From Umbilicaria muhlenbergii (Eukaryota > Ascomycota > Lecanoromycetes > Umbilicariales > Umbilicariaceae), in the NCBI GenBank assembly GCA_000611775.1, contig KK106983.1:406205-470204 (forward strand): a stretch of DNA of 64,000 nt, read 5' to 3'. Shown piece after piece: positions 8,141 through 32,412 of this stretch. Each line of letters begins with the position of its first letter. Positions within the stretch are counted from its first letter, which is position 1. The position numbers and the translations under genes are program-made. The notes under the pieces are model-generated. The model searched no databases. It was not told the origin of the DNA and was given only the letters and a program-made list of their open reading frames with translations.

Positions 8141-8529
8141 GCAAATACGCTCTGAAATCGCTTCACTTAAAGTAATCTAATTTAGTGCAGTGCTCAGATA
8201 TATCTCCTGTGAATATCTGAGAAATACGCGTAAGTTACTGAAACGCTCATAAAATAAAAAACATATGGGTCATCTACAGAGAAACATAGGCTTAGATCAT
8301 AGTCACAGGTCATGTAAGCACATTATATGAGCAGCTGTAAAGGTTTACATTCTTTATTATTAATTTCACCTGACCTCAACTCTCAACACCTGAGAAAGCA
8401 AAGTCCTTAAACTCCTGTAAAAAGAAATGCCCCCTTGAGTCCGGTTAAGCCCCGCCTATGCCATGTCAGGGTCAGTGTCAGTATGTTTGAGCAATGCTTT
8501 AAACATACTGACACTCTTACCCTCCTCCT
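8141..8529. other. Transition region, mixed composition
   Basis: Composition falls from normal to AT-rich and partly recovers near 8430-8520. No gene is seen. It contains the hairpin annotated at 8475-8514, just before the first repeat copy of gene X. Confidence 0.5.
8475..8514. repeat. Perfect 14-bp inverted repeat (hairpin)
   Basis: GTGTCAGTATGTTT (8475-8488) is followed after 12 bases by its exact complement AAACATACTGACAC (8501-8514). The flanks extend the symmetry imperfectly (GGGT on the left, ACCC on the right). It sits next to the edge of the gene X repeats. It could be a terminal structure of a mobile element or a terminator-like fold. Confidence 0.75.
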
Positions 8530-8970
8530 CTCCGTCCAAGCTGATGAATGACTCAACGCTTATTGGACGCTTCAAGGATTCATGATTGAAAATCTCACAG
8601 TGGTGAGCCTGTGATCCTGTGTTATGTTAGCCAACTGTAGCCCCTCAAATTTAGTAGCTCAAGTGATACTTGCCTGTCAATTCAACACCTTGTGCTGCAG
8701 CTGAGGAAGAAATCCTCACTGACATCCTCTCATCACTGAGGGCCTGGCCAGTCCTGAGTGTGACATTAATCACACTCAGAGCATGAAGCTGAGCCTTCAT
8801 GAAAAGAGATGAAGAAGAAAAGGAGAAGAGGGTTTGCAGTGATGATTTTAAAATAATGATGAGAAGCTTTTGAGCAGACGGTCCTGCTATGATCTTGATG
8901 TCATTATCAGAGCCGTCATCAAGGTTGATAACATTGTCATTCAACTTCAGAGTGATAATCTTGTTCATGA
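8530..8970 (-). repeat. Gene X repeat, copy 1 (partial)
   Basis: Direct repeat of about 440 bp, matching 8971-9420 and 10510-10960 over shared landmarks such as GATGACTCAACGCTTATCAG, the splice-like GTTATGTTAG segment and the reverse frame for NLDDxSDNDIK. It is the least decayed copy and abuts copy 2 directly, so it looks like a tandem duplication truncated at its 5' side. Confidence 0.75.
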
Positions 8971-8983
8971 GCTCCTGATTCAA
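8651..8983 (-). pseudogene. Gene X copy 1, unknown protein segment
   Basis: An open frame of 110 codons includes KLNDNVINLDDGSDNDIKIIAGPSAQKL written in two parts as NLDDGSDNDIK and GPSAQKL. The same frame is open in copy 3 (10632-10949), with conserved residues despite many base changes, so it was probably once coding. It ends in GKYHLSY, but a splice-like site (GCAAGT donor, GCTAAC branch, ACACAG acceptor near 8610-8625 on this strand) may instead continue it. I do not recognise the family. Confidence 0.4.
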
Positions 8984-9930
8984 GCTGATGGATGACTCAA
9001 CGCTTATCAGTCACTTCAAGGATTCATGATTGAAAATCTCACAGCAGTGAGCCTGTGATCCTGTGTTATGTTAATCAACTGTAGCTCCTCAAGTTTAATA
9101 GCTCAAGTGATACTTGCCTGTCAATTCAACATCTTGTGCTGCAGCTGAGAGAGAAATCCTCATTGACATTCTTCTGTCACTGAGGGCCTGATCAGTCCTG
9201 AGTGCAGCATTAACTACATTCAAGGCATGAAGCTGAGCCTCTGTGAGGAGGAATGAAGGAGAGAAGAGGAAGAAGATTTGCAGTGACAGTTTTAAAATAA
9301 TGATGAAGAGCTTTTAAGCAGACGGTCCTGCTATGATCTTAATGTCATTATCAAAGTCATCATCAAGGTTGATAACACTGTCATTCAACTTCAGAGTGAT
9401 AATCTTGTTCATGAATTCTTTGAAGGTAGATTTGCTCTTCACTTTGAATTTAATGAAAACAGTTAAACATGACTCTTCTGTTGACTGAGGATTCTGCTTA
9501 TTTTATTAAGCATTACAACAACAGTCATGTTCTTCACTCATTAACATTCTTGTAATCTTGTCTTCAATACTCTCAGTGACCTTAACTTTGCATCAGGATT
9601 TCAAGAATTGTATGACTTCTCCTCTTTGAACTCTTCACATAGAATGCTTCAATTGTTGAGGTCTGTCAGTGCAGCAACAACATTCATCACATGATTCTCT
9701 GTGTACAGAAGCTTAACAATGCCTTGCAGCAATGAGTGCCTGATATGAGCTCAGGTGAGGCTTGCGTAGTGTTGAATGAAGTGCATTTGCAGATGATTGA
9801 TCCTCACAACATAACAGGACACATCAATGTCAATGACATTAAAAACATTCTGCAAGTCATGAGGTAAAATGTAGAGATTCTTCTTTAAAGCTGACATATT
9901 GTGAGGTGATGTCTTGAAATAGGATGTAAA
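8971..9930 (-). repeat. Gene X repeat, copy 2
   Basis: Matches copy 3 (10510-11430) over most of its length, beyond the part shared with copy 1, including the reverse-strand segments for NHLQMH and for an Ala/Leu-rich helix. The reading frame is more heavily broken than in copies 1 and 3. Confidence 0.7.
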
Positions 9931-10043
9931 GTTGAATGTTTAAATTTTGTAGATGATAGGAATTGCTTTTCAATGATAAATGAGATTTTCATGACATGCT
10001 ATTGATGATGAGGAATTTATTGAGGATGCTGACTGCATTTGTT

Positions 10044-10217
10044 GAGAATGCTGACAGTGTTGTGAGGTGAAGTAATTAGGTGAAGTAACAGGGAAAAGCA
10101 GGATGTGTAATTTTATGCATCAGTAAATATGAGAATGCTGACAGTGTTGTGAGGTGAAGTAATTAGATGAAGTAACAAGGAAAAGCAGGATGCATGATTT
10201 TACACATTAATGAATAT
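10044..10217. repeat. 87-bp tandem repeat, two copies
   Basis: Two adjacent 87-bp units (10044-10130 and 10131-10217) beginning GAGAATGCTGACAGTGTTGT. They differ at only a few positions, mainly transitions. They lie in the spacer between gene X copies 2 and 3. Confidence 0.85.
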
Positions 10218-10509
10218 GCACTCTGAAGTGACATAACATCCTGAAAAGGTAAGAGATGAAATTGATGAGACTCATATGCATTTATTTAACTCAGTTATCA
10301 GCTTGTATTATCATCCTCATACTTCTTAATGTTTTGATCAGTGTTACTTCAGTTCAGCGCTCTTTAAAATCCCCTTAATTCAGCGTCAGTTAATCATGAA
10401 TGCATCATTCAGTTCAGCTAGTCATTCAGCTGCTGCTAAAACTAGTTGATGTCACATTTCTCATGACATTGATTGTGCTTCAAGCATACTGACAGCCTCA
10501 TCCTTCAAC

Positions 10510-12245
10510 CCCTCCTTCAAGTCAACAGATGACTCAACGCTTATCAGATGCTTCAAGAATTCATGATTAAAAATCTCACAGCAGTGAGCCTGTGATCCTG
10601 TGTTATGTTAGTCAACTGTAGCCCCTCAAGTTTAATAGCTCAAGTGATACTTGCCTGTAAATTCAACACCTTGTGCTGCAGCTGAGGGAAAAATCCTCAC
10701 TGACACTCTTCTGTCACTGAGGGCCTGACCAGTCCTGAGTGCAGCATTAATCACACTCAGAGTATGAAGCTGAGCCCTCATGAGAAGAAATGAAGAAGAG
10801 AAGGGAAAAAAGATTTGCAGTGATGATTTTAAGATAATGATGAAGAGCTTTTGAGCAGACGGTCCTGTTATGACCTTAATGTCATTATCAGAGTCATCAT
10901 CAAGGTTGATAACACTGTTGTTCAACTTCAGGATGATAATCTTGTTCATGACTTATTTGAAGATTGATGTGCTTCTCACCTTAAATTTAATGAAATCAGT
11001 TAAGCAGGAGTCTTCTGTTGACTGAGAATATTACTTACTTTATTAAGTGTGACAATGACAGTCATGTTCTTCATTCATTGACATCCTCACAATCTTGTCT
11101 TCAACACACTCAGTGACTTTAGCTTTGCATCAGGATTTTAAGAATTATATGACTTTCCTCTTCTGAACTTGTCACATAGAGTGCTTCACTTATTCAGGTT
11201 CATCAGTGCTGCAACAGCATTCATCACATGATTCTTCATGTACAAGAGCTTGACAATGCCTTGCAGCAACAGGTGCCTGATATGAGCTCAGGTGAGGCTT
11301 GTGTAATGTTGAATGTGATGCATTTGCAGGTGAGTGATCCTCACAACATAACAGAACACATCAATGCCAATGACATCAAAAGAGTTTCATGAGTCATGAG
11401 AGACCTGATCAGGATTCTTGTTTAACTTTAACTGTTTCAGCATGATGAACAAGGCCTGGTCTTGAGTTTTCTACAGTGTTGAATATAAGTTTGATTTAGA
11501 ATAAGATGATATGCATATGTTGATGACAATCTGATGATTTCATGAAAGGTCAAAGGTGAACATGATGATTCAGTTCAGTTATTTGAGAGCTCAGTTTATC
11601 AGCTTTGACCTTCCTCAGCGCTTATTAAGAGCACATGCTCATGCAGGAAACAATGTATTCAGATTTAAAACCTCTGATTAATTGATATCTCAAGACTCTT
11701 TTCATGATATTGTATATTTGTGTCATTCAGTTTTATGATCCTGGTCTGAACATCATCTGATAGGGTGTCATATTCAGGGTAGGATTTCATGTTTGAAGAA
11801 AAGTTATTAAGTGAGATGTTGTCCTTGACTTTCTTCTTTGCAGCGCTTGTCAGCTTTCTCAATGCAGAGTCCTTAGCTGTGATTCATTCATGCTGTGAAA
11901 AGAGCTCAAGCTTGAAGCTTTGTGTGTTGAGCACTCCTTTGACAAGCTGTCATCACATATCATGATATGTGATACCCTCAGGCATGATTTCTTGTGTCAC
12001 TCATGCTGCTCTTGTTGCTCTTATTGCTTGAGTTGCTCATGTTGTCTGAGTTGCTCATGTTGCTTGTGTTGCTCTTCTCATCTTTTTCACTCTTCTCACT
12101 CTTCTTATTCTTTTCACTCTTCTTGTCTTTCTTGTTCTTCTTGTTGATTTCAACTTTCTTGTTGATTCTGTCATTGTACTGTCATTCTTTTGTCATTGTT
12201 AATTGGTCTTTTGAGGTGACAAGAATCATGTTTACCGTCATGAGA
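10510..12245 (-). pseudogene. Gene X, fullest copy (copy 3); unknown protein
   Basis: The longest version of the repeated minus-strand gene. Recognisable parts from its 5' side: a low-complexity Lys/Arg/Glu/Ser/Asn region (12245-11960), an open frame at 11862-11665 (KKKVKDNISLNNFSSNMKSY), a middle region with HLQMHHIQHYTSLT and a Leu/Ala-rich helix (11430-11150), and the open frame at 10949-10632 with NLDDDSDNDIKV. In-frame stops are frequent. It diverges from the DUF6589 gene at 12405 with about 150 bp between, so the two may share a promoter. I cannot assign a family. It could be an accessory protein of the same mobile unit. Confidence 0.4.
11960..12150. repeat. Low-complexity CTT/TTG-rich tract
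   Basis: Degenerate runs of TTGCTC, CTTGTTGC and CACTCTTC. On the minus strand it reads as a Lys/Arg/Ser/Asn-rich low-complexity stretch at the start of gene X. Open frames on the plus strand here are compositional artefacts. Confidence 0.7.
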
Positions 12246-12404
12246 TCAATTTAATCTTAAATGAAAAAACCTTTTCATTATGATAACTAAATCATCATGA
12301 CCTCATCACTCATCCTCATCACTCACCCTCATCATTCATCCTCATCATTGTGCTCAGTTTTTCATTTAATTGTTAAAAGATGAACCTGAATACATCTACT
12401 CATT

Positions 12405-15013
12405 ATGAAACCTTCTTTTGATTTAACAGAGCCACCGTCATCCTCTTCATCATTTTACTCAATAAATCTTTCATCAACTTTACCTCCTTCACCACATCTC
12501 AGCTCCTCATATCAGACACAAGATAATACATCATTCTGCTTTCAAACACCTCAAGATGAGCCTCCTGTGAAATGATGACAAGTTGAGAGTTGAACCTCTT
12601 TTATGAATGACTTTGACAAACTGTTATACATTCTGAACCTTTTTCATAACTGGCACTGAATGTTTCAATCTCTGTTGAAGACCCTGATCACAAATTGAAC
12701 TGATCACAGATTTCAAAAGCTGTACAACACCTTTAAATCCTTTGCCTATGATGAGATACTGAAGAGAATGGATGAGGTTTTAAAACAAGATGATTGAGCA
12801 AGGCTTCTGAACATACAAGGATTCACAGAGGCAGGGAAAATTCTTCAGGCTGAAGTAAAGACTTTGTTCAAAACACTCTGCTTTGAGAAATACACTGCAG
12901 ATGAGTCCACTGAGTCTCTGACTCATATGAATAAATTCATCAGCATGTTACATACATTTGCGCCCTGTTGAATGAAGCTTCTTCATGTCATCAGTCATTC
13001 TTCAGACAAGTCACAGTTGACTCCTCTGAAAGCAAAGTATGTGATAATATTATCAATACTTTGTTATCAAATGCATTGAAATAACTGTGACAATCTTTCA
13101 GGTCTGATGAGCCTATACTTGTTTCAAGGTGAAAGTTGATGAAGGGTGATTGATATCATGAATGAACTCAGCCTGTCAAAGTCATATAAGACAATTCAAC
13201 ACTGAGTGAAGAAGTTGAGCAAGCTGAGTTAAAAGAAGATCCTTGAGGTTGAAGCATCTTTCTCTGCAGTTGTGACATATGATAATTTTAAATACACAGA
13301 TGACACTTGAGGAGAATGTACAGAAGATAAATGAACCTTTCAGTTCATCATCACTGCCTTAATCTTTTCAGGGCAATGTATATCAGCTGAAGGATTATTA
13401 CAAAGCATGTGAAGATCACATATTTCTTTGTGAGCAATGAATGTCTTGAAGAAATTATCACAAGATCATACATATCATCTGATATGATTCACCTCTTATT
13501 CAAACATCATGAACAATGCTAACTTGATAAACAGATTAAGAAGTATTTCCTTGAAGTGACAATAAAGTCAGTGTATGCAACATGCTCTGACACTGTCATT
13601 TCACCACAATTCTGGATGACAATCATGCCACAGGTTGAGCTTATCATCATGAGACAAATCACCTCATACCCTCTTCAACTGATCATGGTGAATGAGAGCA
13701 CCACCATCAACAATATAATAATACTGAAGAACATCTTTCTGAATCAATTGAGTTATCAGACAGAGGATACTCAATTCTGCATTAATTTACAGTTGATGTT
13801 TGAAGATCTGAAGACTGTCAAGTGAATGCACTCTGTTATCAGTATTCAACGCTCAACCGCAGAATTATCATTTGATAAGATGAGTTGATTACTTTCAGGT
13901 CTTGATTTATGACATCTTCAACTCAACATGTTACAGCTGATACATAAAGCTCACTGAGGTGCCAGCTCTTCACTCAATCAGTCAACTCTACAATATGCAG
14001 CAGACAAATGAGATCAGTCTGAGGTCATGAAGCTGAATAAGTTTTAAGCACTTAAGGATCTTATCCTTCACAGCTACTACACCCGTGTGAATGAGGTTCT
14101 TATGTTGACAATGCAGCATGATTCAGTTGCTGTTGATTCAGAGTTCAAAAGATTGACATGACTGTGAGAGCATACCTGACTGGCATGAAATAATCAGCTG
14201 AACAGACTATATGAGGCATTTCACTCAGATCTGATGAGTATGACTGAAAAAAGCATGCTGAATGATCACTGGCAGAATCATGTTCAGTTTTGTAATCATG
14301 TGAAGGTCTACATGCTTCTGTCTTACATCATCAAGCATGTAAACATTGAACTTCTTCACTGAGCCTTACAGAAGTGCTGCATCATGTTTTAATTCAAAAC
14401 TGCCAGGAAGGTTCAGTATGCATGAAAACTTATTCAACAGTTACACATCACTGACAGTGATGCATTCAGTGTTGAATTACAACAGATCATTCTTGTCAAC
14501 AGTCTTGTCAACCTTCATCTCAATGATTATAATCATGATTACACATTCAAGACAGATCAACTCCTTGAGCTTCACAACAACATTATGAAGTTCTTTCAAA
14601 GTGAATGATCATCATTTACCTTGAGAAGTGAGAAGCTCCTTGAGTAATGTGCACTGAATGAACTTTATTTTCAGAGATTAAAGCATGACATAGAGACAAC
14701 CTTCAGTTCATGACAATCAGGTGAACACTCATTCAAAAGTGCCTCTGAGGATATTCTCTTCATGACAAGGACGCTGACACAGTCATCTTTAAGCATTAAT
14801 CATGAGCACTTTACTGATTATGATGTCATAAATCTAAGGAATGAGGGCCTTCTACATTTAAATGAGAACATTGCAACATATAATGCAGAGGCTCAAAATG
14901 ACTCTGATTGAGATGATGAGAATATTGAAGGTACAGTGAAAGAGTTGTTAAATGAGTATTCAGCAACTACATCAAACTCCTCTGCAGCCTTTAAAGAATT
15001 TGAATTGATCTAG
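12405..15013 (+). pseudogene. DUF6589-type protein gene, decayed
   Basis: The frame starting MKPSFDLTEPPSSSS reads through a Ser/Pro-rich N-terminus. It continues with FAYDEILKRMDEV, then LKAKYVIILSML, SKSYKTIQHWVKKL, and near 13268-13340 the block VVTYDNFKYTDD followed by FIITALIFS. This pattern (helical repression-like segment, YDNF motif, then a conserved TTALxF strand) matches fungal DUF6589 proteins as I remember them, and the C-terminal half, with helices around LLELHNNIMKFF, also fits. More than ten TGA codons and a few TAA interrupt it. Most TGA fall where Trp is plausible. About 870 codons, a usual length for the family. The TAG at 15011-15013 may be the true end or a mutated Gln. 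Function of DUF6589 is unknown; it occurs in repeated fungal genes and may be transposition-related. Confidence 0.6.
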
Positions 15014-15284
15014 ATCATGCATTATCACTGAAATGAGCAGAAGTCTTTCTTTTTCAATTAAAAGAAGATGATGATAAATTTAAATTCTGTTCTCTCAGTG
15101 CAGTTGATTGTCAGTTACTGTCAACAACAGCCTCTGAAACTGATGTTGCATGTACAGTGTTTGATTGAAATCTACATCATGTAATGCTTGAAGAATCTCT
15201 GACTGTATGTTGACTCTTTGTGAATTTCCCACTTTGAGGTCTGAATGATGAAAGTGAAGGCAACAGAGGCAGCAGAGGCATCTG

Positions 15285-15479
15285 AGATGACAGAGGTTAA
15301 GATGATGAAGGTTGAGACAGTGAAGGTTGAGATGATGAAGGTTGAGATGATGAAGGTTGAGACAATGAAGATTGAGATGATGAAGGTTGAGATGATGAAG
15401 GTTGAGATGATGAAGGTTGAGATGACAGAGCTTGAGATGACAGAGGTTGAGATGACAGAGCTTGAGATGATTGAGATGA
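15285..15479. repeat. 15-bp minisatellite GATGATGAAGGTTGA
   Basis: About a dozen tandem or degenerate copies of GATGATGAAGGTTGA and GATGACAGAGGTTGA. It fills the space between the convergent DUF6589 and helicase frames and creates artefactual open frames on both strands. Confidence 0.9.
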
Positions 15480-17574
15480 TTATAAAGAAGACAGCAGAGA
15501 TGTATTAAGAGTAAACTCATCAATGATGTTTAAGAAAGATAATGTTCATGAATTGCTCTGTTCCTGTAATTGACTGACTCAGGTCTGCTTCTTAGCAGGC
15601 TTTTTAACAGGATTCAGTGCACAGTCATTTCATTGAGATGGTTTTTTAAACTTCTTTAAAATTTTTCAAGCTTTCTTTTGATGTTCTTGATCAGTGAAGT
15701 CAGAGCTCAGCTTTCTCTTCTCTCTTTTTCAATCATTGTTATCTGTTCATGCTTTGAATGCCGGTGAATCCTTTGCCTCAAAATTCAGCTGAGTTGAAGC
15801 AACAATAATGGTCACAACTTTCTCTCAGTCATGTAACTTCTTCACACCTGCACCTCCTCATCTCTGCAGAGTGCTTAAATCATTGATACAATTTCTGTAT
15901 TTGACAATGTTGCTTAAAAGTAAATCTGACATAACAACAGTAAGCTGCAGATGAAAGAAAAAATCATGAAAAAGACTCTTTGTCTTCTGCTCACATCATT
16001 TCAACAGTTCACCTCATTGATAAGGCTCTTTCAGGGAATTCTTAACATCACTGTTGAAAGAGATCATCATCATTCTATTAATCTTGTGCTGAGGATGACA
16101 GACTGTGCAGCATCACTCTGATACAGACTTAATCACTGTTGAATCTTGATAAATCACATCATCAAAGAATGCAAGACTACTTTGATGCATACATGTTTCA
16201 GAGTTCAGCAGAGTGAACAAACCTGAGGTCATATTCTTTCTTCACTCAACATTCCTTTTGTCACTGACTTTGACTGCAGTGAAAGGATCTTTTTCATCAC
16301 ATCAATTCAGATATAATAAAAGAAAGTCACTGCAATCTACTTCATTTCAGACAGCTTAACTCATTTGTTGATACAGCACCTGCATACTTGAGGGCAACAA
16401 TCACTGTATAACTCATGTACAGTCTGAGTTATCAACCTCTAGATCATAGGCGTCCGTGGTTATTATTATGTGACATTTGGTACATTCAGGATTTGGTTTT
16501 CAGAATTCATCAGATATCTTTCTCTTATTGTTGACAGTCATGTGTGAGAAGATCAGTCATACTCATTTTGAAGCCTCTGATGAATATTCAAGTTCTTTCA
16601 TTCATCACTGAAACAGCTCAATAGCCTGCTGAATGAGCTTGATCTCATTCATGTACACTATTGTCTTTGAGATATCAAGAGGACCGGTGACTGTTACTGA
16701 AAGTAAGAACTTCAAATTCAGCATGATCTTCTGAGGGTGCTCAAGGCAGTCTGCAGCCATGAAGATCTCAGGATGATCAATGAATGTTTGATGAATAATA
16801 ACATCATCATGAAACTCAGTGTGATGCTTGACTTCCTGCAGAGTCTTTGCATTCAATGTTGCAGAGACCTTTAAAACAGGTACATGTGAAGAAATTCAAC
16901 TGCAAAGTATATGCAGATTCTGATATTCAGGCTGAAAGCTTCCTCATTCACTGACAAGATGTAGTTCATTAATTGTTATCAAAATTAAGCCTGCCTGAAA
17001 GAAAGGTGCATGAAGTACATCCTTTTCAAATTACTTTGACACTGCAATCTCAGGACTGACAAAGATTATATAAGTGTTAATTCAATCACCTTTGATAAAG
17101 TGGCAAGGGTTAATCATGAGTATAGTCTTCAGCACTGATGACTGCACATGTTCTTTCATTGTTGATCTCATCATTGAGAACAATTGACTTCACATCAAGC
17201 AGATGTTTAAGCTTCTCAGTCTGCTCCTCCTCAAGCAACAACAGTGACATTATTATCAGTGCTATGTATGATTGATCTGTCTCAATTAAGGGTGTCACTT
17301 GAAAGACAATGCTCTTGTCAAACCTCATCTTAGCAATGAGAATTATATCTGTTTGATTGTACATCAGTGATTGAATAACCTGCAACTGCATGAGTTTCAG
17401 GCTGTGTTCAAACACCTCTGTCACATGACAGTGAATATGTTCATTCTGTTCCTTCATTCCCTCCGTGGTGTCACTTGAAATCAGCAATGTTGCAACACCC
17501 TTAAGAATGTTTTCATTGTCTATTCACAAGGCATCATCTGATGTTTCATTCAACATTGTCTTCATCACCTTCAT
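15480..17574 (-). pseudogene. RecQ-type ATP-dependent DNA helicase, decayed
   Basis: RecQ helicases unwind DNA 3' to 5' with ATP. The two best-preserved frames carry family landmarks. At 17487-17110: LMQLQVIQSLMYNQTDIILIAKMRFDKSIVFQ, here split as motif 0 (LQVIQSL) and a degenerate Walker A (AKMRFDKS for AKTGFGKS), then ALIIMSLLLLEEEQ and NDEINNERTC. Around 16990-16900 a NELH stands where DEIH/DEVH motif II belongs, followed by VPVLKVSATLN (motif III). At 16856-16605: FIDHPEIF and PLDISKTIVYMNEIKLIQQAI, the start of the second RecA lobe. A C-terminal Lys-rich tail ends at TAA 15480. Several stops and substitutions in ATPase motifs mean it is inactive. The ATG at 17574 is in frame with KVMKTMLNETSDD. 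Such RecQ-like genes also occur in fungal subtelomeres and mobile units. Confidence 0.75.
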
Positions 17575-18044
17575 CACATCACTTGTGGACAACTGCAGAT
17601 GTCTTAAAGAGGTTTGCTTTCACCTTAAGCTGATGTGAAGAGTCATCAGGTACGGGACAGTGAACCTATGACATATATGACAAGACTGACACTAGATATT
17701 TGCTTGCAAGTTGACTCAGAGATTGCTTAAGAGTATGAGAGGCGCTGAAGAAACTTTGAGCTGATGTGATCATTTAATTTTAAAGATACTGAGTCAGGGT
17801 TTTTCAACAATATCAAGGAGACACGCTCTCACAAGGAATAACTCAACAACAGCATGCACAATCTCAAATCTGACAGCAAGATTTAATAAAGCAGGTGCTA
17901 TATAATCAACTTCACATATAAATATATAATTATAATGATGTTGTTGACGCTTTCATGTCATCAGTGATAAACAGGTGAAGGATTCAACGTGAAGCAGTTT
18001 CTGTTGAGCATGTTTATCATGACATGAAGCGTTTTCTGACTTGT
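17575..18044. other. Upstream region of the helicase
   Basis: AT-rich noncoding sequence that would hold the helicase 5' region. Apart from the inverted repeat at 17947-18032 nothing is recognised. Confidence 0.4.
17947..18032. repeat. Imperfect inverted repeat near the right edge of the RecQ block
   Basis: ACGCTTTCATGTCATCAGTG continuing to GATAAACAGGT (17947-17976) pairs with CATGTTTATCATGACATGAAGCGT (18009-18032, given here only as positions plus its core GACATGAAGCGT), with small bulges. The stem is about 24 bp. It lies at the AT-rich side of the composition change at about 18045 and could be a terminal structure. Confidence 0.6.
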
Positions 18045-18344
18045 TTTCAAGATTACGCCCTCAGACCCTCCCTGGAAAATGCACACAGTCAGCATTTGTA
18101 GTTAATCTTAAAGGGCATTAAGGCCCGGCTAGTCCTAGCTGAGGCAGAGGGGTCTGAGTGACTGAGGCAAATGTAACTCACAGGGCAACACTGCATTATA
18201 AACAATGCTGCACCCCCCTCCTCCCCCTCCCCCCCTTGGTAGGAAAATATGAATACACATAAACATTGATAGAAAATCAGAATTTCATCAATTGAACTGC
18301 AGATTTCAATTTAAATAAACAGCTTTGAAGCTCTGCATTGTAGT
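18045..18344. other. Normal-composition noncoding patch with C-rich tract
   Basis: CpG, CCA and TGG reappear briefly. The patch contains a C-rich run (18210-18238, blocks of C separated by T) and no coding frame. It separates the RecQ block from the pogo transposase and may be unique host DNA or the 3' flank of the pogo element. No clear terminal inverted repeat was found. Confidence 0.55.
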
Positions 18345-19985
18345 CTATAGTAGAGCTGTAGAATCTATGAATTTCAGAAACTTTAAGACTGCTTTTGCTG
18401 TGACAGCTGCAGTTTTTGCTGTCTGCTTCTTCTTCTTATTCTGCAGCTGTTTTAACTTCTTGACTTGTGCCTTCAGCTGCTTTACTTTCTTCAGCACTCT
18501 TCTCTGCTCTGCTAAGTCCTTCTTGATCTGTTGATTAATTAGTTGAGTTTGCTTCTCTTTCTCTTTAGTCTCCTGTAGCTTCTCAGCCTCCTCCTTTACT
18601 AATATTCTTTTTAACTTTGTATATGCTTTCTTAAATTGAGTCTGCTGCTTCCCCTTTCATATATTAGCCTCCATGAGGGCTTTTGTTCAATGTTCAAGTA
18701 TAATACAGTCTGCAATTGCTTTAATAGCAGCTTTACTGAGCTGCATCACATGCTGTTTCACATGTGAAGTTCCGTTCAAAATCTGATTCACAACATCATT
18801 GATTTCAGAGGGGTTGAAAGGTGTAAGAATGAGGTTGACAGAGTATTCATTAAAATCTGTAATAATCAGTTCTGAAGGAGTTTAAGGGTGAAGAGAGAGC
18901 TTAACTATAACTGCTGCAGAATTGAAGGAATATAACTCTGCAGCAGCTCAAGAAGAGGTGATATTATTTTATGTAATAATCTTTGAACTGACCTGTAAGT
19001 AGTGCTTCAAGAAATCTTATTTGTCAATAAAATAACAGCCTTCAGAATGACTGTTATTCTCAATTGACTTCTTATAAACCTTTGTCAACAGCTCAAAGAT
19101 ATCAATATCAAGAGACTGTAGCAAGTGCATAGAATGAGAGGGTAAACATAATGAAATAATGCCTTTCTCATGACAAAAATTAATGAATTGACTGATGCAA
19201 TAAGAGTCATGATTATTTAAAATAAGAAGCTGCTTTTCAGCTGCTTTTTGAGCAGTATAAAGCTTAAATACCTTGATTAATCACTTCAATTTAAGCTCAT
19301 TATCAGTTCAACTCTTCTCAGAAACAGTAATAACAGTGCTCTTAATAATCTCCTCTTGAAATCATTCTTTTAAGAGCTTTTTCCCCTTGAAGATCATCAT
19401 AAGTGAAAAATGCTAACCTCATATGAATATGCATTTTATTAAAGTTGTTCATTTTTTATTCTCTGACTGTTGAATGTTCTCAGTCTTCATTATACATGAT
19501 ATAATAATCTTGAAGAATGTTATAACCTCATGCAGTATACTCTTTTCATTCATATTGTAAATATCCCTCATAGTGATGTCATACTTCTCAATTGTCATGT
19601 TGTATAATTAAAATCAACACTCAATGACTTCTTGAAAGCTTATTAAATATCATGCTTGATTTAACTTATAAAAGAAGGTGCTTTTCAGGTCAGAGTGATG
19701 CTGTAGAAATTTTAAATATCAATTAAAACTCAAGTTAATTATATTTTCTTTCACTACAAGAAGATTCTTGACTAGAGATTATAAATCTTTAATTCACAAT
19801 GATCACTCTCATCTTGCTGTTATAATAATTCATCTTTTTATAAAATTCTCTTTTACAACTGATAATCTCTGCATGTTACTGCTGAATATGTGTTTAGGCT
19901 GTTGAGTGCCCTGAATTCTCCCTCATAATGTACAGTCTGAAATGTCATATTAAGTGACAATTCAACAGTAGAAAGGTATCAGGGT
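18345..19985 (-). pseudogene. Fot1/pogo transposase, near full length but decayed
   Basis: Minus-strand product resembling fungal pogo-class DDE transposases. A CENP-B/psq-like N-terminal region reads as DLKSTF...LNQA near 19600-19700. The middle has DITMRDIYNMNEK, matching the DIYNFDE catalytic block with the acid changed. The second catalytic block reads LLILNNHDSYCISQFINFC (19250-19170), against LLILDGHxSH in active enzymes, followed by LCLPSHSMHLLQSLDIDIF. The C-terminus is the typical Lys/Gln coiled region (KKVKQLKAQVKKLKQLQ) ending at TAG 18345-18347. Both visible catalytic Asp positions are altered and several stops interrupt it. The TIRs and TA duplication were not found. Its 5' side stops at the LTR of element C (20011). 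Confidence 0.78.
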
Positions 19986-20010
19986 CATTATATATAATAA
20001 TATAATAATA

Positions 20011-20092
20011 TGACAGTATGACAGTATGACAGTATGACAGTATGACAATATGACAGTATGACAGTATGACAGTATGACAGTATGACATTATA
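20011..20092. repeat. Microsatellite (TATGACAG)n at LTR start
   Basis: About ten tandem copies of the 8-mer TATGACAG, at the 5' edge of the C LTR. The right LTR has a shorter, more degenerate version (42634-42680). Confidence 0.9.
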
Positions 20093-20298
20093 ACTTAAAT
20101 ATGATGACTCAGCGCCTAGCGCCTTGACATCAAGTGAAAACTCTTCACAAGAAGGTGCAGAAATCTGCTTTCTCAATGATCAATTTTGTCACCTAATAAA
20201 AGACATATAATCATTGCATTGACTTTATCATGATTATATTACTCATGACACTCTGTTTAACACTTATATGATGACTGTTGTACACTCAACCTCTTACA
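20011..20298 (+). repeat. Left LTR of element C
   Basis: 288 bp; starts TGACAGTATGACAG, ends CTCTTACA. It matches 42636-42891 throughout, except that the leading microsatellite is about 32 bp longer here (four 8-bp units). Confidence 0.8.
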
Positions 20299-20340
20299 TA
20301 CTGATCACTCAGTACCTTCAGGTGAACAGTCATGTCAAAA

Positions 20341-20982
20341 GCATAAAACATGATGACATTAACACTTCAATCTCATCAGGTCAGTGAAACAGTTAATAAT
20401 CAAGCTGAGATAAACTCTTCAACTAACAGATCTACATTATCAGTTGTTGATACTTTTATTTCTGACATCAAAGATGACAGGTGTGAACACATCACTGCAG
20501 GTAATTCTGATGACATCATTAAAGATCTTAAAACAATCACTGCTCACAATCAAAAGATCATCAAGCATCAGTGATTATAATTATGATATGTATAACAAGA
20601 AATTGAGTTTAAAGATAATAAAAGAAAGCTCTGAGAATTTAATTAACATTTATAAGAAGATTCTTCAATTATGATAAACTCAAAAAATGACACAGATTCA
20701 TCACATGAATTATGATGTTAAATTATAATAAACATCACACCTTCCTCTTTTTAACATCTTGTAAAGTCATGAGAGCCTCATCTCTATGCAGGAGGTGTTA
20801 AAGTCATGAGATGAAAACTTTAAAAATATTTGAACAAAATTAATCAAAATTAAAAGCTGATGTCAGAGCAATTTCTTATCAAATGAGATTTCATCATTTA
20901 AGCAGGCACCTACCTAAAGAAAACTGTCATGAGTGATTAATGAAAACAGAAGAAGCAGCATGATCATATTTAAATCACTTAA
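20341..20982 (+). pseudogene. Element C gag-like region, first part
   Basis: AT-rich decayed coding region after the C LTR. An open stretch at 20350-20574 includes EINSSTNRSTLSVVDTFISD. The region is interrupted at 20982 by element A and resumes at 34537. Confidence 0.5.
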
Positions 20983-21234
20983 TGTCAAGTTTACACCTGA
21001 ACATGTTACTGAACACTGAACTGAATGTTGTACTGAACTGAATGACTGAATGAGTTAGCAGTGATTAAACTGAATAAGTTAACAGTGATTAAACTAATGA
21101 GTTTAACATGCATATAAAAACTTTAATCTTTGCACTCTTTTCTTCTTTTGCTTCTTAGACTAGAATTCTTCTCTGTAGTTAAATGTCAGCTGTTAAAACA
21201 TATGCATTAATTCATAATCTGCATAATCTTGACA
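20983..21234 (+). repeat. Left LTR of element A
   Basis: 252 bp with perfect short inverted ends TGTCAAG and CTTGACA. Same length as 34285-34536. Confidence 0.9.
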
Positions 21235-21384
21235 TTATTTTAATCTTTTTCTTTATCTTCTGCTGCAAGGCATTCTGAATAAATTCTGAATCAGATTGAC
21301 ACTGAAGTCAGATAATCAACACATCAGAATTAAAATCTGAACCAGAATTAAAATCAAAACCAGAATCAGAATTGAAAATTAATC

Positions 21385-24300
21385 ATGATGATTAAAGAAA
21401 CTGATAACAGAGTTTACTCATGAATTAAAGAGTCTTTGTTGACTTCTGCAAATGATGAACAATTCACCTTGAATGAAAACCTGATCAATCAGATCCTAAT
21501 CACCTTGACTGCAGAGACTTTAATTAATTTTTTATAAAAATATTTCTCTGAAGTAATGACTGCTCTCTGATAATTAATCACTGATCATAAGTAGTCCTTG
21601 AATGAAATTGACATCATCATAAAGGCACATGAAGAACTACAAGTGAACTATGAAAGAATGAAAGACAAGAACAAAGAACTGAAGAAGAAAGTCATTAAAT
21701 AAGTTAATGTGATAACATACTTTAAACAATAAATCATAATCATCTTCACAAGCACCCTCTGACCTGATTTCCCTCAACTCACAGTTAAAAAATTATTTAG
21801 ATTATTAAAGCTTCCTGATTTACTGATGTTCTTCAGTGATTATTTAAAATATGATGAATGAGTAATGAAGATCAGAAACTATTTATTAACAATGAATAAA
21901 TAATACCTCACTGAGCAGATGAAAATAACATACATGAAGATAAAAGTTGAGAGTGACTCTGTTAAACACATAAAGTCTTGAATGAATTCAGCATCTTGAA
22001 CAGCTTATTTAAATATTAATGAACTGCTAAAATATTTGACCTGAATTTATAAAGATTCAGATTGAAAACATATCATCATCAATGAATTCTGTAAATTTTA
22101 TTAAAAATTCAAAGACTTCTCATCCTTCTGAGCTGATTTTCAGTGATATGTTACTGAATTGAATGAGTTTCTTGATTCATACTAAATAAGAGAACTTCTG
22201 AACAAGGTGAACAACATCATTCAATAATAATTAAACACTAATGATGACAGACCTGAAGATCTTTATGAACTCATTAAGTGCTGTTAATGAATTAATCAAA
22301 CCTTATGACTGCTTGACACAAAGAAAATCATCAGATTTTAACTGAATCAGACATCTTCCTTCACAAGTTAAACTCATACAAGGATTGAACATTTTATTAA
22401 AATCTTAAAATCAACTACCTGAATGATCACTGAGTCAGTGCCTTGAATACTGAACTGAACATCACACTCAGATGTCATCAAAGAACAATAAATGAAGAAA
22501 GAAAGATGTTTTAAATATAATGAATAAAAACACCTCACCTTTAACTATTTAAACAAGAACAAAAAGAAAGAGACTTCAACATTAAAACATGTGCAACAAA
22601 TCATATTTAATTCTGATTCTGATTTTGAATTAAATTCAGGAAAAGGCGTTCCTCTATTAAAGTCATAATAAGAAATGATGATAATCTTCTTATGATATTA
22701 ATGTTGATGATTAATGAAGACATTCTGTTCACCTGAACATCATTTAAAGCAGATTGCAAGCTCACTCTGAATGAGATCAAGTTATGAGTCAAGGCTCTAC
22801 TTGATACTGAGTCAACTGAATATGCATTCATTAATGTTAATCTGACAAAGACTCTGATTGAATGATCTGAAATTAAAGCAGTATCACTGCCAAAGCTCTG
22901 AACTTTACATGATTTTCAGAAAAAGACAGTGAGATGAGTTACACATGTGATTTATTCAATTATGAAGGTCTGTGATTATTCTCAGTGACTCACCCTCATG
23001 ATGATTATAAATATGAAAGATCTCAGCATTATACTGAGACTCTTTTAAATGAATCACACTCAGATTTTAATTGACCCTGTGAATCAGGTAGTGATTTTCT
23101 CACTGAATGAATGAATTAAACTGAATGAACAAACTGAACTGAATAAATAAAGTGAACTGAATGAACAAACTGAACTGAATAAATGAATTGAACTGAATGA
23201 ATGAACTGAACTAAATAAATAAACTGAACTAAACAACTGAATTCTGAATAAATAAATGAATCAAATGATTGAACCTGAATCAAATAACTGAACTGAATCA
23301 CTGAAACTCTATCAGATCCTGAAGAAATTCATCACAAAAACAAATTCTGAATTAACCTCTGCATCAAAGAGTAATAGCTCCTCACATGTAATCAATATTA
23401 AGATGATTGACATGACATCATTCATATTAAATATGAAGAAAGACAATGAGATCTTTATTATCTTTATTCAACAAATTAAGAAAGCATTGAATCTTGAATT
23501 AAAGTTAAGTGAATTAAATATCAAGATAATTCTCTCTTCTGAATATCATGACCTGATTAATGTCTTTTTTAAAAAGACTGCAAATGAACTTCCTCTGCAT
23601 TAACTCTATGATCACAAGATTGTCTTAAAGAATGAGCAAAAGTTAAAATACACACCTCTCTACAATATGTCACATGAAGAACTGGTAGTGGTAAAGAACT
23701 ACATAGAAGATAACTTGCAAAAAAGTTTTATTGAAGTCAGTTAATCATCAATAGCCTCACTGATTATGTTTATATGAAAGAAAGATGAGTCTTTATAACT
23801 GTGCATCAACTACTAAAAGCTGAATTTGATTATGAAGAAAGATTGATACTCATTGTCTTTAATTGAGGAAACCCTGACTCAGATTTTAAAGATAAAATAC
23901 TTCATCAAGATTGATATACAACAGGTATTTCACTGCATATGAATGAATCCTGAATCTGAAGACCTGACAACCTTTCAAACAAGGCATGATTTCTACAAAT
24001 ATAAGATCTTGTCATTTAAACTCATTAATAGATCAGTCACCTTTCAGTACTTTATTAACAACATATTGTTCAATCTATTGAACACTTATTATACAACATA
24101 TTTAAATGATATTCTGATCTATTCAGAGTCTCTGTTTAAATATTAAACTCATGTTTGAACTGTTCTAGAATGACTGAGAAAGGCAAATTTACAGACTGAA
24201 ATCAAGAAGTATGAATTTCACAAGATTGAAACTCAATACTTAAAATTAATCATAAGATGTCATGACATCTGAGTGAACTCTGAAAAGATCACAGTCATTA

Positions 24301-24806
24301 AAACTTAAAAGATATCAATCAACTTAAAACAGCTGCAGACATTCTTAAATTTTTATAACTTTTACTGATGATTCATAGAGAAATATTCTAAAATCACAAA
24401 ATCTTTAATCAGACTGACAGGCAAGAACATACTTTTTAATATGTAAACTAAATAATGTCTTCAAGTGTTTAGTGAATTAAAGAACTGATTGATTAACATG
24501 TTAATATTACAACACTTTGACTGAACTTAAACATGTTATCTTAAATGTGATTCATCTGATCTGATATTCACAGGAGTATTATCTCAGAAAGATGATTAAA
24601 AATTAATGCATTCAATGACATTTTTCTCTAAGAAACTCATATCAGCTGAATGCAATTATGAGATTTATGATAAAGAATTGTTGATCATCATTTGAAGTTT
24701 AAAGAAATAATGTGCTGAATTAGCAGGAACAGAAGATCTGATTTAAATTTTAATAAATCATAAAACTCTGAAGTACTTTATGATAATCAAGAAATTGACT
24801 TGCAGA
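21385..24806 (+). pseudogene. Element A gag-pol remnant, first part
   Basis: Decayed gag, protease, reverse transcriptase and first part of RNase H in gypsy order. The segment 22960-23330 is a low-complexity run of AACTGAATGAA-like units. Coding continues beyond the inserted element B at 32413. Widely interrupted. Confidence 0.7.
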
Positions 24807-25193
24807 TGTAACAGGTGATGTTATAATGATTAAAGTAATATTATCATTCACTGAACTATTGACTTTCAAAATGAAATAGAACTTAGAAGATAGAATTAAT
24901 AAATTGCCTTTGATACATGAGTTGAGCATGAGCTTTTAACTATGAATCTACCTGTGATTATATAGACTATAAGAGACTCATGTGCTCAGTGTGCTCATCA
25001 TGCTCATCTCAGTGAGCAAGGTGAGCAACATGATGTAACACTTCATGCTCAGCATGCTCAACAGGTGAGCAAGGTGAGCAACATGATGTAACTCTTCATG
25101 CTCAGCATGCTCAACAGGTGAGCAAGATGAGCAGTATTATGTGTACATTCACACTGCATACTTCATTAGTATTATAGTGTGAAAGCTGTAACA
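24807..25193 (-). repeat. LTR of element B (3' LTR in element orientation)
   Basis: 387 bp, TGTAACAGG...GCTGTAACA. Internally it holds two 60-bp tandem units rich in TGCTCA and GTGAGCAA (about 25005-25130). Confidence 0.92.
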
Positions 25194-25372
25194 CTAGCTT
25201 CCCCCTCAAGGTTTTCATTCTTGAAAACTTAATCATCTTCATATCTTCTTTCTGAGTGCAAAAGAAATTGAACTTCTTTCAACATCATCATAATCTTCTT
25301 CACAGGCTCAACCTTGCTCCTTTCATCATGCAATCATGTAAGTGATGCATCAATGATGTAAAAGATTATCAT

Positions 25373-25642
25373 ATGAGTGATGATTCTGAAAAGTGTGTCA
25401 CTTATATACAGATTAAAAAGTCTTGTGATCTTTCTTTTAACAGTGCTGACTGAGAAAAGGTGAAAGCTGAACTTGCTTCACTGAAGGAAAAGACTTCTGC
25501 TGCTGAGAAAATAATTGCTGAGATGTCAGTTAAGTTGATTCATCTGTGCAAACAGAAAAGACTGTTGCAACACTGTCAGAAAGACTTTATCTCTCATGAA
25601 TTTATAAACATTGAAGAGTTGAAGGCAGAGGAAAGCAAGTAA
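25373..25642 (+). pseudogene. Antisense frame in 3' region of element B, coiled coil
   Basis: A frame on the strand opposite to pol, starting MSDDSEKCV, with CDLSFNSAD followed by a Lys/Glu/Leu coiled-coil stretch (KAELASLKEKTSAAEKIIAE) and an acidic end. A Cys-containing start followed by a coiled coil resembles small fungal proteins often predicted antisense to LTR elements. A comparable antisense frame occurs in elements C and D. Function unknown. Confidence 0.45.
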
Positions 25643-28600
25643 ATGAAGACTTCAACTTTAACTGTTACTTCTGAACTTTTCAACTTCTCAGTGTTGAATG
25701 ACCTCTGAGGTTCAGGTTCTGTTGTCAGAACTGATGTAATTTTATCACATAATGAGTAAGGTTCTTCTTTAATTCTCATGTGTTTCCTGCTGTGTCATAC
25801 ACTTTTCACTTGATTAAGTAATGAAGCTCATCATCAACTTCCTGTTAATTTAAAATCTTCTCTACCTCAAACTCAGTATCTTGACTTTTCAGGTCAATCT
25901 TTGATGAATTTACTTATAATGATGTTTCTGAATCTGCTGATTCAAGTAGAGATACATGAAACACTGAGTGTATTCACATGAATAATGAGAGTTTAAGCTT
26001 ATAGTTGACACTTTCTTTCTTCTTCATAATTCAAAAAGGTTTTAACTTCTTGTGATTCAATTTATTGTTTGATCATGTTGTCTTAATGTTGTGCTGTAGA
26101 AGGTATACTTTTCTTCTTTTTTCAAAAGTAGATCTCTTATCTCTTTTCTTATTATAATTTACCACTGACCTTTCTGAGGTAAATTTTATGTTTCATTGTA
26201 GTTCCCTATGAAGGTTCTTCAGGTGATTCACTCATACTTTCATTTTTTATGTTATGATTATCAGTCCTCTTGTTTCATTCATAGGTGAGTTGAATCTGTA
26301 GTTGACATAAAATGATGATATCCCCGTGAACTCTGTTGTTGTCATGTTATAAGTTAGTTGAGCTATCAGTAAAAGTTCTACTCAATTGATTTATTGATAA
26401 TTAATGTAGCAGCACAAGTACTGTTTTAGCATTTGATTTAAGTGCTCAGTTTGTTCATTCATCTGAGGATGATATGCTGTGAACAGTTTATAATGAATCT
26501 CTAGTTGATTCACTAATGACTTTTAAAACTTAAAGGTGAAGAGTTTATCTCTGTCTGAGATTATTTCTTTTAGCAGCTCATGATTGGCTGTTATAACTCT
26601 TAAAAACATGTATGTTAATTCTTCTACTGATAATGACTCTTTATAAGGTAAGAAGTATTTATACTTCATGAGTCAGTTCATTATGACAAGTATTGTGTTG
26701 TATAATACTTTCATCAAGGGTTCCTTTGACTTTGATAGCTTTATCATGAAGTTCAATGTGATGCTCAATCATGATTGTGATGATGTTGATGATGATTTTA
26801 ATAATTCATATGATCTATGATGTTCAGCTTTATTTTTTCAGCAGAGATCACATTTTTAAATGATTTCTTCAACCTTCTTCCTTAATCATGAGAAGTAGTA
26901 TGTTTATGTGAGTTGTTTCACTGTTTTTTCAACTCCTTGATGTTCATTCATCTTGCTGAAATGATATTCTTCTATCAGTGATTCTTGTAAACTGATCAGT
27001 ACATAAATTAAGTCTTGAAAAAGTAAAAGACCTTCTTGCTTTTCAAAGCTTTCATGATCATTAATATTTTAAAGAACTTGTTGTGCTATCTTGTCATTCT
27101 TCAACACTTTTTGAACTTGATTTTTGAAAATGTTATTCTCAACTTTTATCATAAAGTTGATTTCTCTGTTATATGTTATGCTTTCTTGCTCATTCTTTCA
27201 GAGGATAACTTGATTCATGACTGACTTTTCCTGCAGGTAGTCATCTCATTTACTAAAAGTATTCACTTTAATGTTCTCTGATCCTTTTTGATAATGAATC
27301 TTGAAATTATACTGTGACAATTCCTCTGATCAATGAACTTGTCTTTGATTCAGGACTTTTGTTGTCATAAAGTATAACAGATTCTTATAATCTGAATACA
27401 CTTAAACCTCATACTTTGATCCTTTAAGATATACATGTCATTGCTTAAATGCATCAACAATAGTTAACAGCTCCTTGTCATGTATTTTATAACTTTGTTC
27501 AGCGCTTAACAGTTTTCATGAGTAGTAGGTTACTGATCACAGATGTCTCTTATCATTTAACTGATTAATGCATGCTTTTATAGCTCTGTCTGATGTGTTC
27601 ATCTCAAGCGTAATAAGTTTCTCAGGATTGAAACTCATGAGAATTAATTATGATGTGAAGTGCTTCTTCAGCTCTTTGAAGGATCTTTGTGCTTCAGTAA
27701 ATTAAATGAATTTTCAGTCTTTCTTCATCAACTTCATTAAAGGTGCTGTGATTTTAAAATATTTCTCAATAAACTTTCTATAGAAGTTTGCAAAGCTTAG
27801 AAAGAATTGTACTTCCTTAATGCTCATTAAAACTGATCATTCAATCATGAAACAAATTTTTTTCAGGTTCATCTGTAAGCTTTTTAATGTGATGATGAAT
27901 TCAAGGAACTGAACTTCCTTGGCATGAAAAAGACTTTTTTTAAGTTTAACTCACAGGTCAGTGTCCTTCAACACTTGTAGAACTTTTCAGACATGTTTGA
28001 CATGCTGCTCTTTCATCTTTGAGTACATCAGTATGTCATTGAGGTAGATGACTATGAACTGGTTTAAATATTGTCATAAAATATTGTTGATGAAAGCCTG
28101 AAAAGTCATAAGGGCATTGATTAATTCAAATGACATTACCAAGTATTCATATAGCTCTGAATGTGTTTGAAATGCTGTTTTTCATTCATCACCTTCTTTT
28201 ATTTATATCTGGTTGAATGCTCTTGAAATGTTGAACTTCATGAATCATTATGCTTCCTGAAATCTGTCCTGCAGTTTTGACGTGAGCAGCAGTGAATAAC
28301 TGTTTTTTATCATTATGTTGTTCAGTGCTCTGTAGTTGACACACAGTCTTAATGATTCATCAGATTTTGAGATAAACAATATTAAATATTCAGCTGAAGA
28401 CTGAGATTCTTGAATGAATTCTTTTCATAAGTTCTTCTTTAAATATTCTCACAATGTGTTTAACTTCTGAGGTGACAGTGAGTATATGAATTACTTCATT
28501 GATTTGCAACCTTTCATGATCTTGATTTCATGATTTCATTCTTAATGTTTCAGTAAGGTGTTCTGTTCTTTAATTACTATAAACAACTCTTCAAAGTCTT

Positions 28601-29471
28601 TGTATTCTTTAGGGATAAATAACTTGATAATAGAGTCTCAGTCATCATCAACTCACTTAATTCACAGTATCTTTGTGTTGAGATTTTTTAATTCCTCACG
28701 TGTCTCTTTCACTGTCATAATGAAGACTTTCACTCCTTCAGATGAGTACAGGACTGAATATAACTTCATGAGTATATTATCTTTCATGAAGTATATCTCA
28801 TTCTCAGCTCAATCAATCATAGGATTGACTTTTCAGAGTCAAGATATACTGAGGACTATGTCACTTCCTGACTGCTTCATATGTTGAAATTGATTTTCTC
28901 TCAGTGTTGACTTATTCAGATAAATGTTAAAACTGTTTCTTTATTTACCTGACTGTTGTTGTGTTTCATGAGGGTTTCATTAAACTCTTGAAGTAAATAA
29001 AGATTTCACTTCTCTTGAATTTTTATCCTGTTTGCTTCTGCAAATCATGAATTTAAGAAATTTCCTGTGCAGTCACTGTTGATCAGCAGTCTGACTGAGT
29101 GATTTTTCACTTTAACTTAAACACAGAAGTTGCTCATGTTTTCTGTGATAATGATTTCTTTAACAATTGCTTCTTCTGAAGGCTTTAAATCAGATGTCTT
29201 CAAAAGCCTCTGATCTGAAAAGCTCTTTAATTTTTTGAATTAAATGAGAGGAATCTCAGATTCTCTCTCACATACTTGAAGTTCTTTGAGTTGACTTTCT
29301 TATCTGAGTACCACAGAGGGTTTAACTTTAAGTATTCACTTCAGAGTTCTCAAACTTTCATATGTAGTCTCCTTGAGATGTGCACTCTGTTGAGGGTAAT
29401 GTACTCTCCTTTCATGATGAATTTTGAACCCTTTGAAGATGTTTCTCTGACATCAGCAATTTAGCAAGTTA

Positions 29472-32020: not shown

Positions 32021-32407
32021 TGTAACAAGTGATGTCATAGTGACTGAAGTAGTACTGTTATTCACTAAATTATTAACTTTCACAATGAAATAGAACTTAG
32101 AAGATAGAATTAATAAATTGCCTTTAATACATGAGTTGAGTATGAGCTTCTAACTATGAATCTACCTGTGATTATATAAATTATAAGAGACTCATGTGCT
32201 TAGTGTGCTCATCATGCTCATCTTGATGAGCAAGGTGAGCAACATGATGTAACACTTCATGCTCAGCATGCTCAACAGGTGAGCAAGATGAGCAATATGA
32301 TGTAATTCTTCATGCTCAACATACTCAACAGGTGAGCAAGGTGAGCAGTATCACATGTACACTTACACTGCATACTTCACTAATACTATAGTGTGGGAGC
32401 TGTAATA
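32021..32407 (-). repeat. LTR of element B (5' LTR in element orientation)
   Basis: 387 bp, identical in length to 24807-25193 and aligned over its whole length, including the GCTCA/GTGAGCAA tandem units. Confidence 0.92.
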
Positions 32408-32412
32408 GTAGA

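What the first reader, a model, noticed from the sequence alone, without database searches (positions are those of the whole stretch)
8471..18044. Possible large mobile unit pairing a RecQ helicase with a DUF6589 gene and a tandemly repeated unknown gene
Three non-LTR genes lie together in one AT-rich block: gene X (minus, three repeat copies), a DUF6589-type gene (plus, divergent from X) and a RecQ-type helicase (minus, convergent with DUF6589). Their shared decay suggests all were recognised as repeats, so all were multi-copy. Composition steps at about 8430-8530 and 18045 bracket the block, and inverted-repeat structures sit at both edges (8475-8514, 17947-18032). Helicase plus a putative transposition-linked domain could be a rolling or replicative element not yet described. 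It may instead be three unrelated repeats that landed side by side.
Basis: partly seen in the sequence, partly recalled or inferred. Interest (0 to 1): 0.75.

Follow-up and report, generated by a model that had tools for sequence, protein, structure and literature searches.

The report
Decayed helicase-encoding fungal transposon, probably
A mutated block of fungal DNA carries a RecQ helicase gene, a gene of the unstudied DUF6589 family and a partly duplicated unknown gene; it most likely is the wreck of one mobile element that carried its own helicase, a kind already known in fungi, but its ends could not be shown.

Summary
The three genes are real. DUF6589 matches Pfam PF20231 at E 4.7e-27. 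The helicase is a RecQ (NCBIfam recQ_fam E 5.5e-20; WRN and BLM structures) with four cysteines aligned to WRN's zinc-binding ones. Gene X matches no family above a cut-off. Its three repeats read as one gene with an in-frame 148-codon duplication plus a second copy. Seven segments of the block share a low TpA that none of 24 other segments has, so the block behaves as one unit. Its ends are not shown: the two edge hairpins are real but unlike each other, the left one is missing from the other X copy, and no convincing inverted ends or target duplication were found. Co-occurrence elsewhere could not be tested: the genomes searchable here are not fungal. Fungal DNA transposons with a helicase are in print: KolobokH (RecQ) and AcademH (PMC9587614, PMC10799480; passages read). 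Best reading: a decayed transposon of that kind with the DUF6589 protein as transposase (0.55). 'Rolling or replicative, not yet described' is not supported. No held paper discusses DUF6589.

The parts
8471..18044 (.). Point-mutated block of shared composition holding three genes; presumed remnant of one element, ends not proven
8455..9863 (-). Gene X, copy with an in-frame 444-base internal tandem duplication (B 8981-9863 plus A 8495-8970); decayed, no known family
   Evidence: Repeats; reading frames; no family above cut-off; no solved structure
10476..11400 (-). Gene X, second copy (C); may extend upstream towards 12.0 kb
10043..10216 (.). 87-base direct repeat, two copies, between the two X genes
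12603..14998 (+). DUF6589 gene (PF20231 match 13628-14728), proposed transposase; 28 TGA and 5 TAA in the two stretches counted, whose frame changes near 13.4 kb (by eye)
   Evidence: (E 4.7e-27 and 8.9e-30)
15501..17523 (-). RecQ helicase core and zinc-binding subdomain, read in two frames that change near 17.1 kb
15238..15520 (.). 15-base tandem array that reads SSQPS-like units in the RecQ frame; probable C-terminal tail of the helicase
8474..8515 (.). Hairpin at the left edge, beside X copy A; none at the matching place of copy C
17947..18032 (.). Hairpin at the right edge, near one of two modelled compositional borders

Best explanation
The block is a mutated copy of one DNA transposon of the helicase-encoding kind. 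SHOWN: the three genes, their order and orientation, the RecQ identity of the helicase and the shared composition. INFERRED: the DUF6589 protein is the transposase (a DDD/E-type enzyme) that would cut the element at both ends and join it to a target. The RecQ helicase, encoded convergently, would unwind DNA at the ends or during gap repair. X would be an accessory protein. The copy was then hit by repeat-directed C-to-T mutation, which put stops into all three genes, and its ends are now unrecognisable or lost.
For: DUF6589 profile match. RecQ: motif 0/I region (weak, E 0.068), core with four aligned cysteines, recQ_fam 5.5e-20. Shared composition across the three genes and the gap at 12.0-12.5 kb: TpA 0.40-0.51 in 7 of 7 segments, 0 of 24 others below 0.56; CAA/(CAA+TAA) 0.50-0.65 in 7 of 7, 3 of 24 others at 0.50 or above. 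No significant internal break: 29 of 500 permutations reach the best split, which lies inside X at 9350, not between genes. X copies differ mostly by transitions (54 of 55, 52 of 56, 45 of 47, 49 of 67 differences), so mutation followed the duplication. Print: KolobokH carries a RecQ helicase and is known only from fungi, and a red-algal Kolobok has its RecQ gene on the complementary strand (PMC9587614); AcademH encodes a helicase and occurs in Basidiomycota, Ascomycota and Mucoromycota (PMC10799480, PMC10045372); units of about 10,470 bp with two RecQ-like genes and one uncharacterised gene are reported as KolobokH at Cladobotryum telomeres (PMC10989895).
Against: No convincing terminal inverted repeat or target duplication. 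The hairpins are not a pair. The right border moves to 18244 or 18850 under other tests. That DUF6589 is a transposase rests on its place beside the helicase and on residues picked by eye (D at 13281 and 13805, DxxH at 13904, E at 14567); as I recall other DUF6589 proteins, the first position of that DxxH motif is not C or D. The fold prediction failed (mean pLDDT 36.6). Lack of a break is not special: of four control stretches two also lack one (309 and 62 of 500), two show one (1 and 13 of 500). No relative was found, but those collections are viral and prokaryotic. The Cladobotryum unit has two RecQ-like genes, this block one.
Confidence: 0.55

Rival explanations
1. Three unrelated repeats, or two (a DUF6589-RecQ element and separate X repeats), landed side by side and decayed together.
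For: No common ends were found. The best internal split, though not significant, lies in X (9350, 29 of 500). X has no family. Neighbouring AT-rich DNA is a mosaic of other repeats.
Against: All seven segments, including the 12.0-12.5 kb gap between X and DUF6589, share GC, TpA and mutation levels that differ from most other repeats in the window.
Confidence: 0.22
2. A telomere-linked helicase (TLH) repeat: host subtelomeric RecQ DNA that spread by recombination, not a transposon.
For: Repeated, often AT-rich or mutated RecQ sequences are reported at fungal chromosome ends (PMC4522978, PMC7473861, PMC3017866, PMC5576322; passages read).
Against: No doubled TTAGGG telomere repeat on either strand of the window. 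No DUF3505 (now OrsD, recalled) domain came up in the Pfam scans, whereas the Colletotrichum families carry it. Those helicases are described without zinc-binding and RQC domains (PMC5576322) or without any domain beyond the core (PMC7473861), while this one has four cysteines aligned to WRN's; decay can also create cysteine codons.
Confidence: 0.13
3. A duplicated host gene segment that was mutated because it was duplicated.
For: Tandem X copies exist and differ mostly by transitions. A cluster of endogenous genes with helicases, degraded in this way, is reported in another fungus (PMC3017866).
Against: DUF6589 and RecQ are single in this window, and the gene region at 4.6-8.1 kb is little mutated.
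Confidence: 0.1

Closest known systems
KolobokH DNA transposons of fungi (Kojima and Bao 2022, PMC9587614; passages and section 10 read)
   Same: Transposase gene plus RecQ helicase gene, fungal; reported units of about 10.5 kb at Cladobotryum telomeres hold RecQ-like genes and an uncharacterised gene (PMC10989895, passages read).
   Different: No TTAA duplication with RR...YY termini and matching inverted ends found here; kinship of DUF6589 to Kolobok transposases not testable with the tools held; one RecQ gene, not two as in Cladobotryum; gene X unmatched.
AcademH DNA transposons (Kojima 2020; paper not held; known here from citing passages and recall)
   Same: Transposase plus helicase, animals and fungi including Ascomycota (PMC10799480, passages read).
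   Different: 9 or 10 bp target duplications expected (PMC10045372, passages read); no clear one found.
Telomere-linked RecQ helicase repeats (TLH)
   Same: Repeated, mutated RecQ genes in fungi.
   Different: Described without a zinc-binding domain and, in Colletotrichum, with DUF3505 and telomere repeats (PMC5576322, passages read); here aligned cysteines are present, DUF3505 and doubled telomere repeats were not found.
Helitrons
   Same: A helicase in a mobile element.
   Different: Helitron helicases are PIF1-like with a Rep/HUH domain (recalled; PF05970 and PF14214 named in PMC10799480). Here the helicase is RecQ, and no such domain came up in the 31 Pfam queries, which left some plus-strand frames out.

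Membership tests
KolobokH | RecQ helicase gene next to the transposase gene | tested here: inconclusive
   RecQ confirmed; that the neighbour is a transposase is inferred
KolobokH | TTAA target duplication with 5'-RR...YY-3' termini and inverted ends | tested here: not met
   Best of 580 TTAA pairs matches 12 of 20 inner bases; 162 of 300 shuffles reach that. Near the edges two RR...YY pairs exist (8167 with 18108 and 18383), matching 7 and 9 of 20. May be lost by decay
KolobokH | Kolobok-type DDD/E core with C/DxxH motif and zinc finger before the last E | tested here: inconclusive
   A DxxH and acidic residues can be picked by eye; no clear C-x-x-C pair before the candidate E by eye; mutation obscures residues
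AcademH | 9 or 10 bp target duplication | tested here: inconclusive
   30 pairs of 9 bp and 12 of 10 bp with up to 1 mismatch, against means of 15.92 and 5.25 in base shuffles; 8 of the 12 lie in one C/T-rich run; inner ends of the 12 match at most 5 of 14
AcademH | Academ transposase | not testable with these tools
   No Academ profile or sequence held
Telomere-linked helicase | Next to telomere repeats | tested here: not met
   No doubled TTAGGG on either strand of the window
Telomere-linked helicase | Helicase core without zinc-binding domain | tested here: not met
   Four cysteines aligned with those of WRN; that these are zinc ligands is recalled
DUF6589 (PF20231) | Score above the curated cut-off of 27 bits | tested here: met
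   95.2 bits, 104.1 bits
RecQ helicase | DEAD core, Helicase_C and RecQ zinc-binding subdomain | tested here: met
   recQ_fam score 71.6 is below its curated 219.8, as a broken partial copy would be; no Pfam DEAD match was listed
Helitron | HUH/Rep domain and PIF1 helicase | tested here: not met
   No such family in 31 Pfam queries; no plus-strand frame left of 12.0 kb and only two of three right of 15.5 kb were given

The most novel reading that the evidence does not exclude
DUF6589, a family with no functional literature in the library held, is the catalytic transposase of a separate lineage of RecQ-armed DNA transposons with its own third gene (X). Many DUF6589 proteins would then be unrecognised transposases or their tamed descendants.
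Probability: 0.25. Interest if true: 0.65.

Novelty: new variant of a known kind. Interest (0 to 1): 0.42.

Why it matters
If the DUF6589 protein is a transposase that travels with a RecQ helicase, a domain of unknown function gets a testable activity, and a further case is added in which a DNA transposon brings its own helicase. It would also bear on whether RecQ genes repeated in fungal genomes are host genes or parts of mobile elements.

Tried and rejected
Searches for relatives: DUF6589 in viral contigs, no pattern match; in prokaryote contigs, 9 pattern matches, none a relative. RecQ in viral contigs was sent in a wrong reading frame by my mistake, so says nothing. Degenerate motifs recalled from memory for DUF6589 gave 3, 7 and 0 stretches in viral contigs. 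The 3 look like chance matches in phage-like contigs (by eye). Of the 7 only 2 showed the motif when translated, and the parts of these two given to Pfam matched nothing at E 0.1. DUF6589 rang in 0 of 14 control genomes and 0 of 1 record, so that tool cannot speak to fungi.

Structure: one fold of a DUF6589 piece had mean pLDDT 36.6; no fold search was made on it.

Ends: TTAA pairs, local inverted and direct similarity (29 of 200 and 23 of 200 shuffles reach the observed score), short direct repeats, shared 9-mers (1 inverted; 1203 of 1240 control pairs have as many or more; 7 direct, without a control). A 10-base near match at 8445 and 18118 (9 of 10) is one of 12 such pairs, about 5 being expected.

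Gene X: an OrsD/DUF3505-like zinc finger seemed possible by eye, but no OrsD match was listed at E up to 5 and 10; what was listed lay below the cut-offs (best E 0.03).
Full report
WHAT THE WINDOW IS. No whole genome is held. Long AT-rich stretches with C-to-T decay between less mutated gene islands point to a filamentous fungus; the species was not determined.

THE BLOCK. Between about 8.5 and 18.0 kb GC is 0.35-0.39 (seven segments), CpG is a tenth of expectation and TpA is low. I cut most of the block into seven segments by gene (10.0-10.4 and 15.0-15.5 kb left out) and compared them with 24 others: one host gene region, one pogo-like stretch and 22 two-kilobase pieces. TpA observed/expected was 0.40-0.51 in 7 of 7 block segments and 0.56 or more in 24 of 24 others. 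The share of CAA among CAA+TAA was 0.50-0.65 in 7 of 7, and reached 0.50 in 3 of 24 others. In 300-base windows TpA is noisier and reaches 0.74 at 10.05-10.35 kb. A split test inside the block found no significant break (29 of 500 permutations reach the best split, at 9350 inside X). Adding the left host DNA or the right neighbour gave strong breaks, at 8600 and 18850 (0 of 500 each). Of four control stretches two also lack a break (309 and 62 of 500) and two have one (1 and 13 of 500), so lack of a break alone is weak; the level is what sets the block apart. By change point the left border is vague: 8304 (8160-8569) against host-like DNA, no support against AT-rich DNA. The right is 18029 (18022-18056) against host-like DNA but 18244 (18224-18905) against AT-rich DNA.

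DUF6589. Read with stops as X, the plus strand matches PF20231 at E 4.7e-27, profile positions 56-410 of 410; with TGA read as tryptophan, 8.9e-30. By eye the gene starts further left in another frame (12603 to about 13.4 kb). In the two stretches counted there are 28 TGA and 5 TAA stops and no TAG. Candidate catalytic residues were picked by eye (positions): D at 13281, D at 13805, DxxH at 13904, E at 14567. This is a lead, not a test. No sequence match to a solved structure at E 10, and the fold failed. No paper in the library holds the word DUF6589; the one listed paper with its Pfam number is an optics paper (listing only).

RecQ. The minus strand matches WRN (2.9e-9; 3.8e-9), BLM (1.8e-6) and recQ_fam (5.5e-20). 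The N-terminal piece 17110-17523 aligns weakly but in the right place with WRN (E 0.068), and Helicase_C passes its cut-off (25.9 against 23.5 bits). The alignment pairs four cysteines with the WRN ones that I recall as zinc ligands; C-to-T decay can also create cysteine codons. Towards the C-terminus a 15-base array reads as SSQPS-like units in the same frame.

GENE X. Copies lie at 8495-8970 (A), 8981-9863 (B) and 10476-11400 (C). A and B are 444 bases apart, which is 148 codons, and lie in one frame. So I read two X genes, one with an internal duplication. The least interrupted frame changes between the two halves of X in both B and C, which suggests an intron or a second exon. The copies differ mostly by transitions: 54 of 55 (A-B), 52 of 56 (A-C), 45 of 47 and 49 of 67 (two parts of B-C), spread over the three codon positions. 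The duplication therefore came first and mutation after. X matched no Pfam family above its cut-off, and the one X gene tried (B+A) no solved structure at E 10.

THE ENDS. The left hairpin (8474-8515) and right hairpin (17947-18032) fold better than all 200 shuffles. The edge regions are not alike beyond chance, and the matching place in X copy C forms no hairpin. I read the left one as a local feature of that copy, not an element terminus. No inverted ends were found: TTAA pairs match at best 12 of 20 inner bases, reached by 162 of 300 shuffles, and local similarity is reached by 29 of 200 shuffles. Short direct repeats number about twice the base-shuffle mean (12 against 5.25 for 10 bp), 8 of the 12 in one C/T-rich run, none with good inverted ends. 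The ends are thus unproven.

WHAT IT MOST LIKELY IS. Fungal DNA transposons with a helicase are in print. [quoted passage not shown] a red-algal Kolobok has RecQ on the complementary strand (PMC9587614). AcademH carries a helicase and occurs in Basidiomycota, Ascomycota and Mucoromycota (PMC10799480), with 9 or 10 bp duplications (PMC10045372). In Cladobotryum mycophilum units of about 10,470 bp with two RecQ-like genes and an uncharacterised gene, called KolobokH, sit next to telomere repeats (PMC10989895). The present block resembles those in size and partly in make-up. I therefore take it as a decayed helicase-encoding DNA transposon, with DUF6589 as the presumed transposase (0.55). Whether DUF6589 belongs to the Kolobok, Academ or another transposase lineage cannot be told here. 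Telomere-linked helicase repeats are the main known alternative; the aligned cysteines, the lack of doubled telomere repeats and the lack of a DUF3505 match speak against it. Unrelated neighbours remain possible (0.22).

LIMITS. The finding's own test, the same genes together elsewhere, could not be made: the collections searched are viral and prokaryotic. Kojima 2020 on AcademH was not held and is cited through others. Papers cited here were read as found passages, except one whole section (section 10) of PMC9587614. The Pfam scans left out all plus-strand frames left of 12.0 kb and one of three right of 15.5 kb.

Noticed in passing
8600-17900, 20000-36000, 38000-50000: The mutation signature is not the usual CpA one (recalled). 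CGN is nearly gone in all contexts, and CCA and CTA (C two bases before A) are strongly turned to TCA and TTA, while CAC, CAT and CTG are largely spared and CAA is hit mainly in the two AT-rich stretches, not in the block.
   Followed up: partly
36514-36919 and about 63600-63945: A tandem repeat with a period of about 74 bases keeps many CpGs (29 in 36501-37000) inside otherwise nearly CpG-free DNA, and recurs in inverted order at the window's right end.
   Followed up: no
39158-41960 and 60586-63387: A 2.8 kb direct repeat, 76% identical, with further repeat pairs at 37137-38815/44018-45669 and 35263-36348/42932-44025.
   Followed up: no
18045-18240: A short GC-richer strip that keeps CC/GG runs, between the block and a stretch whose translation at 19017-19280 looks like a pogo/Fot1-type DDE transposase by eye, no family search made.
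   Followed up: no
19977-20104: An 8-base tandem array (TATGACAG), with a relative at about 42611-42675.
   Followed up: no
8445-8454 and 18118-18127: A 10-base near match (9 of 10) starting with TTAA just outside the two block edges; one of 12 such pairs, about 5 expected; worth checking against an empty site.
   Followed up: partly
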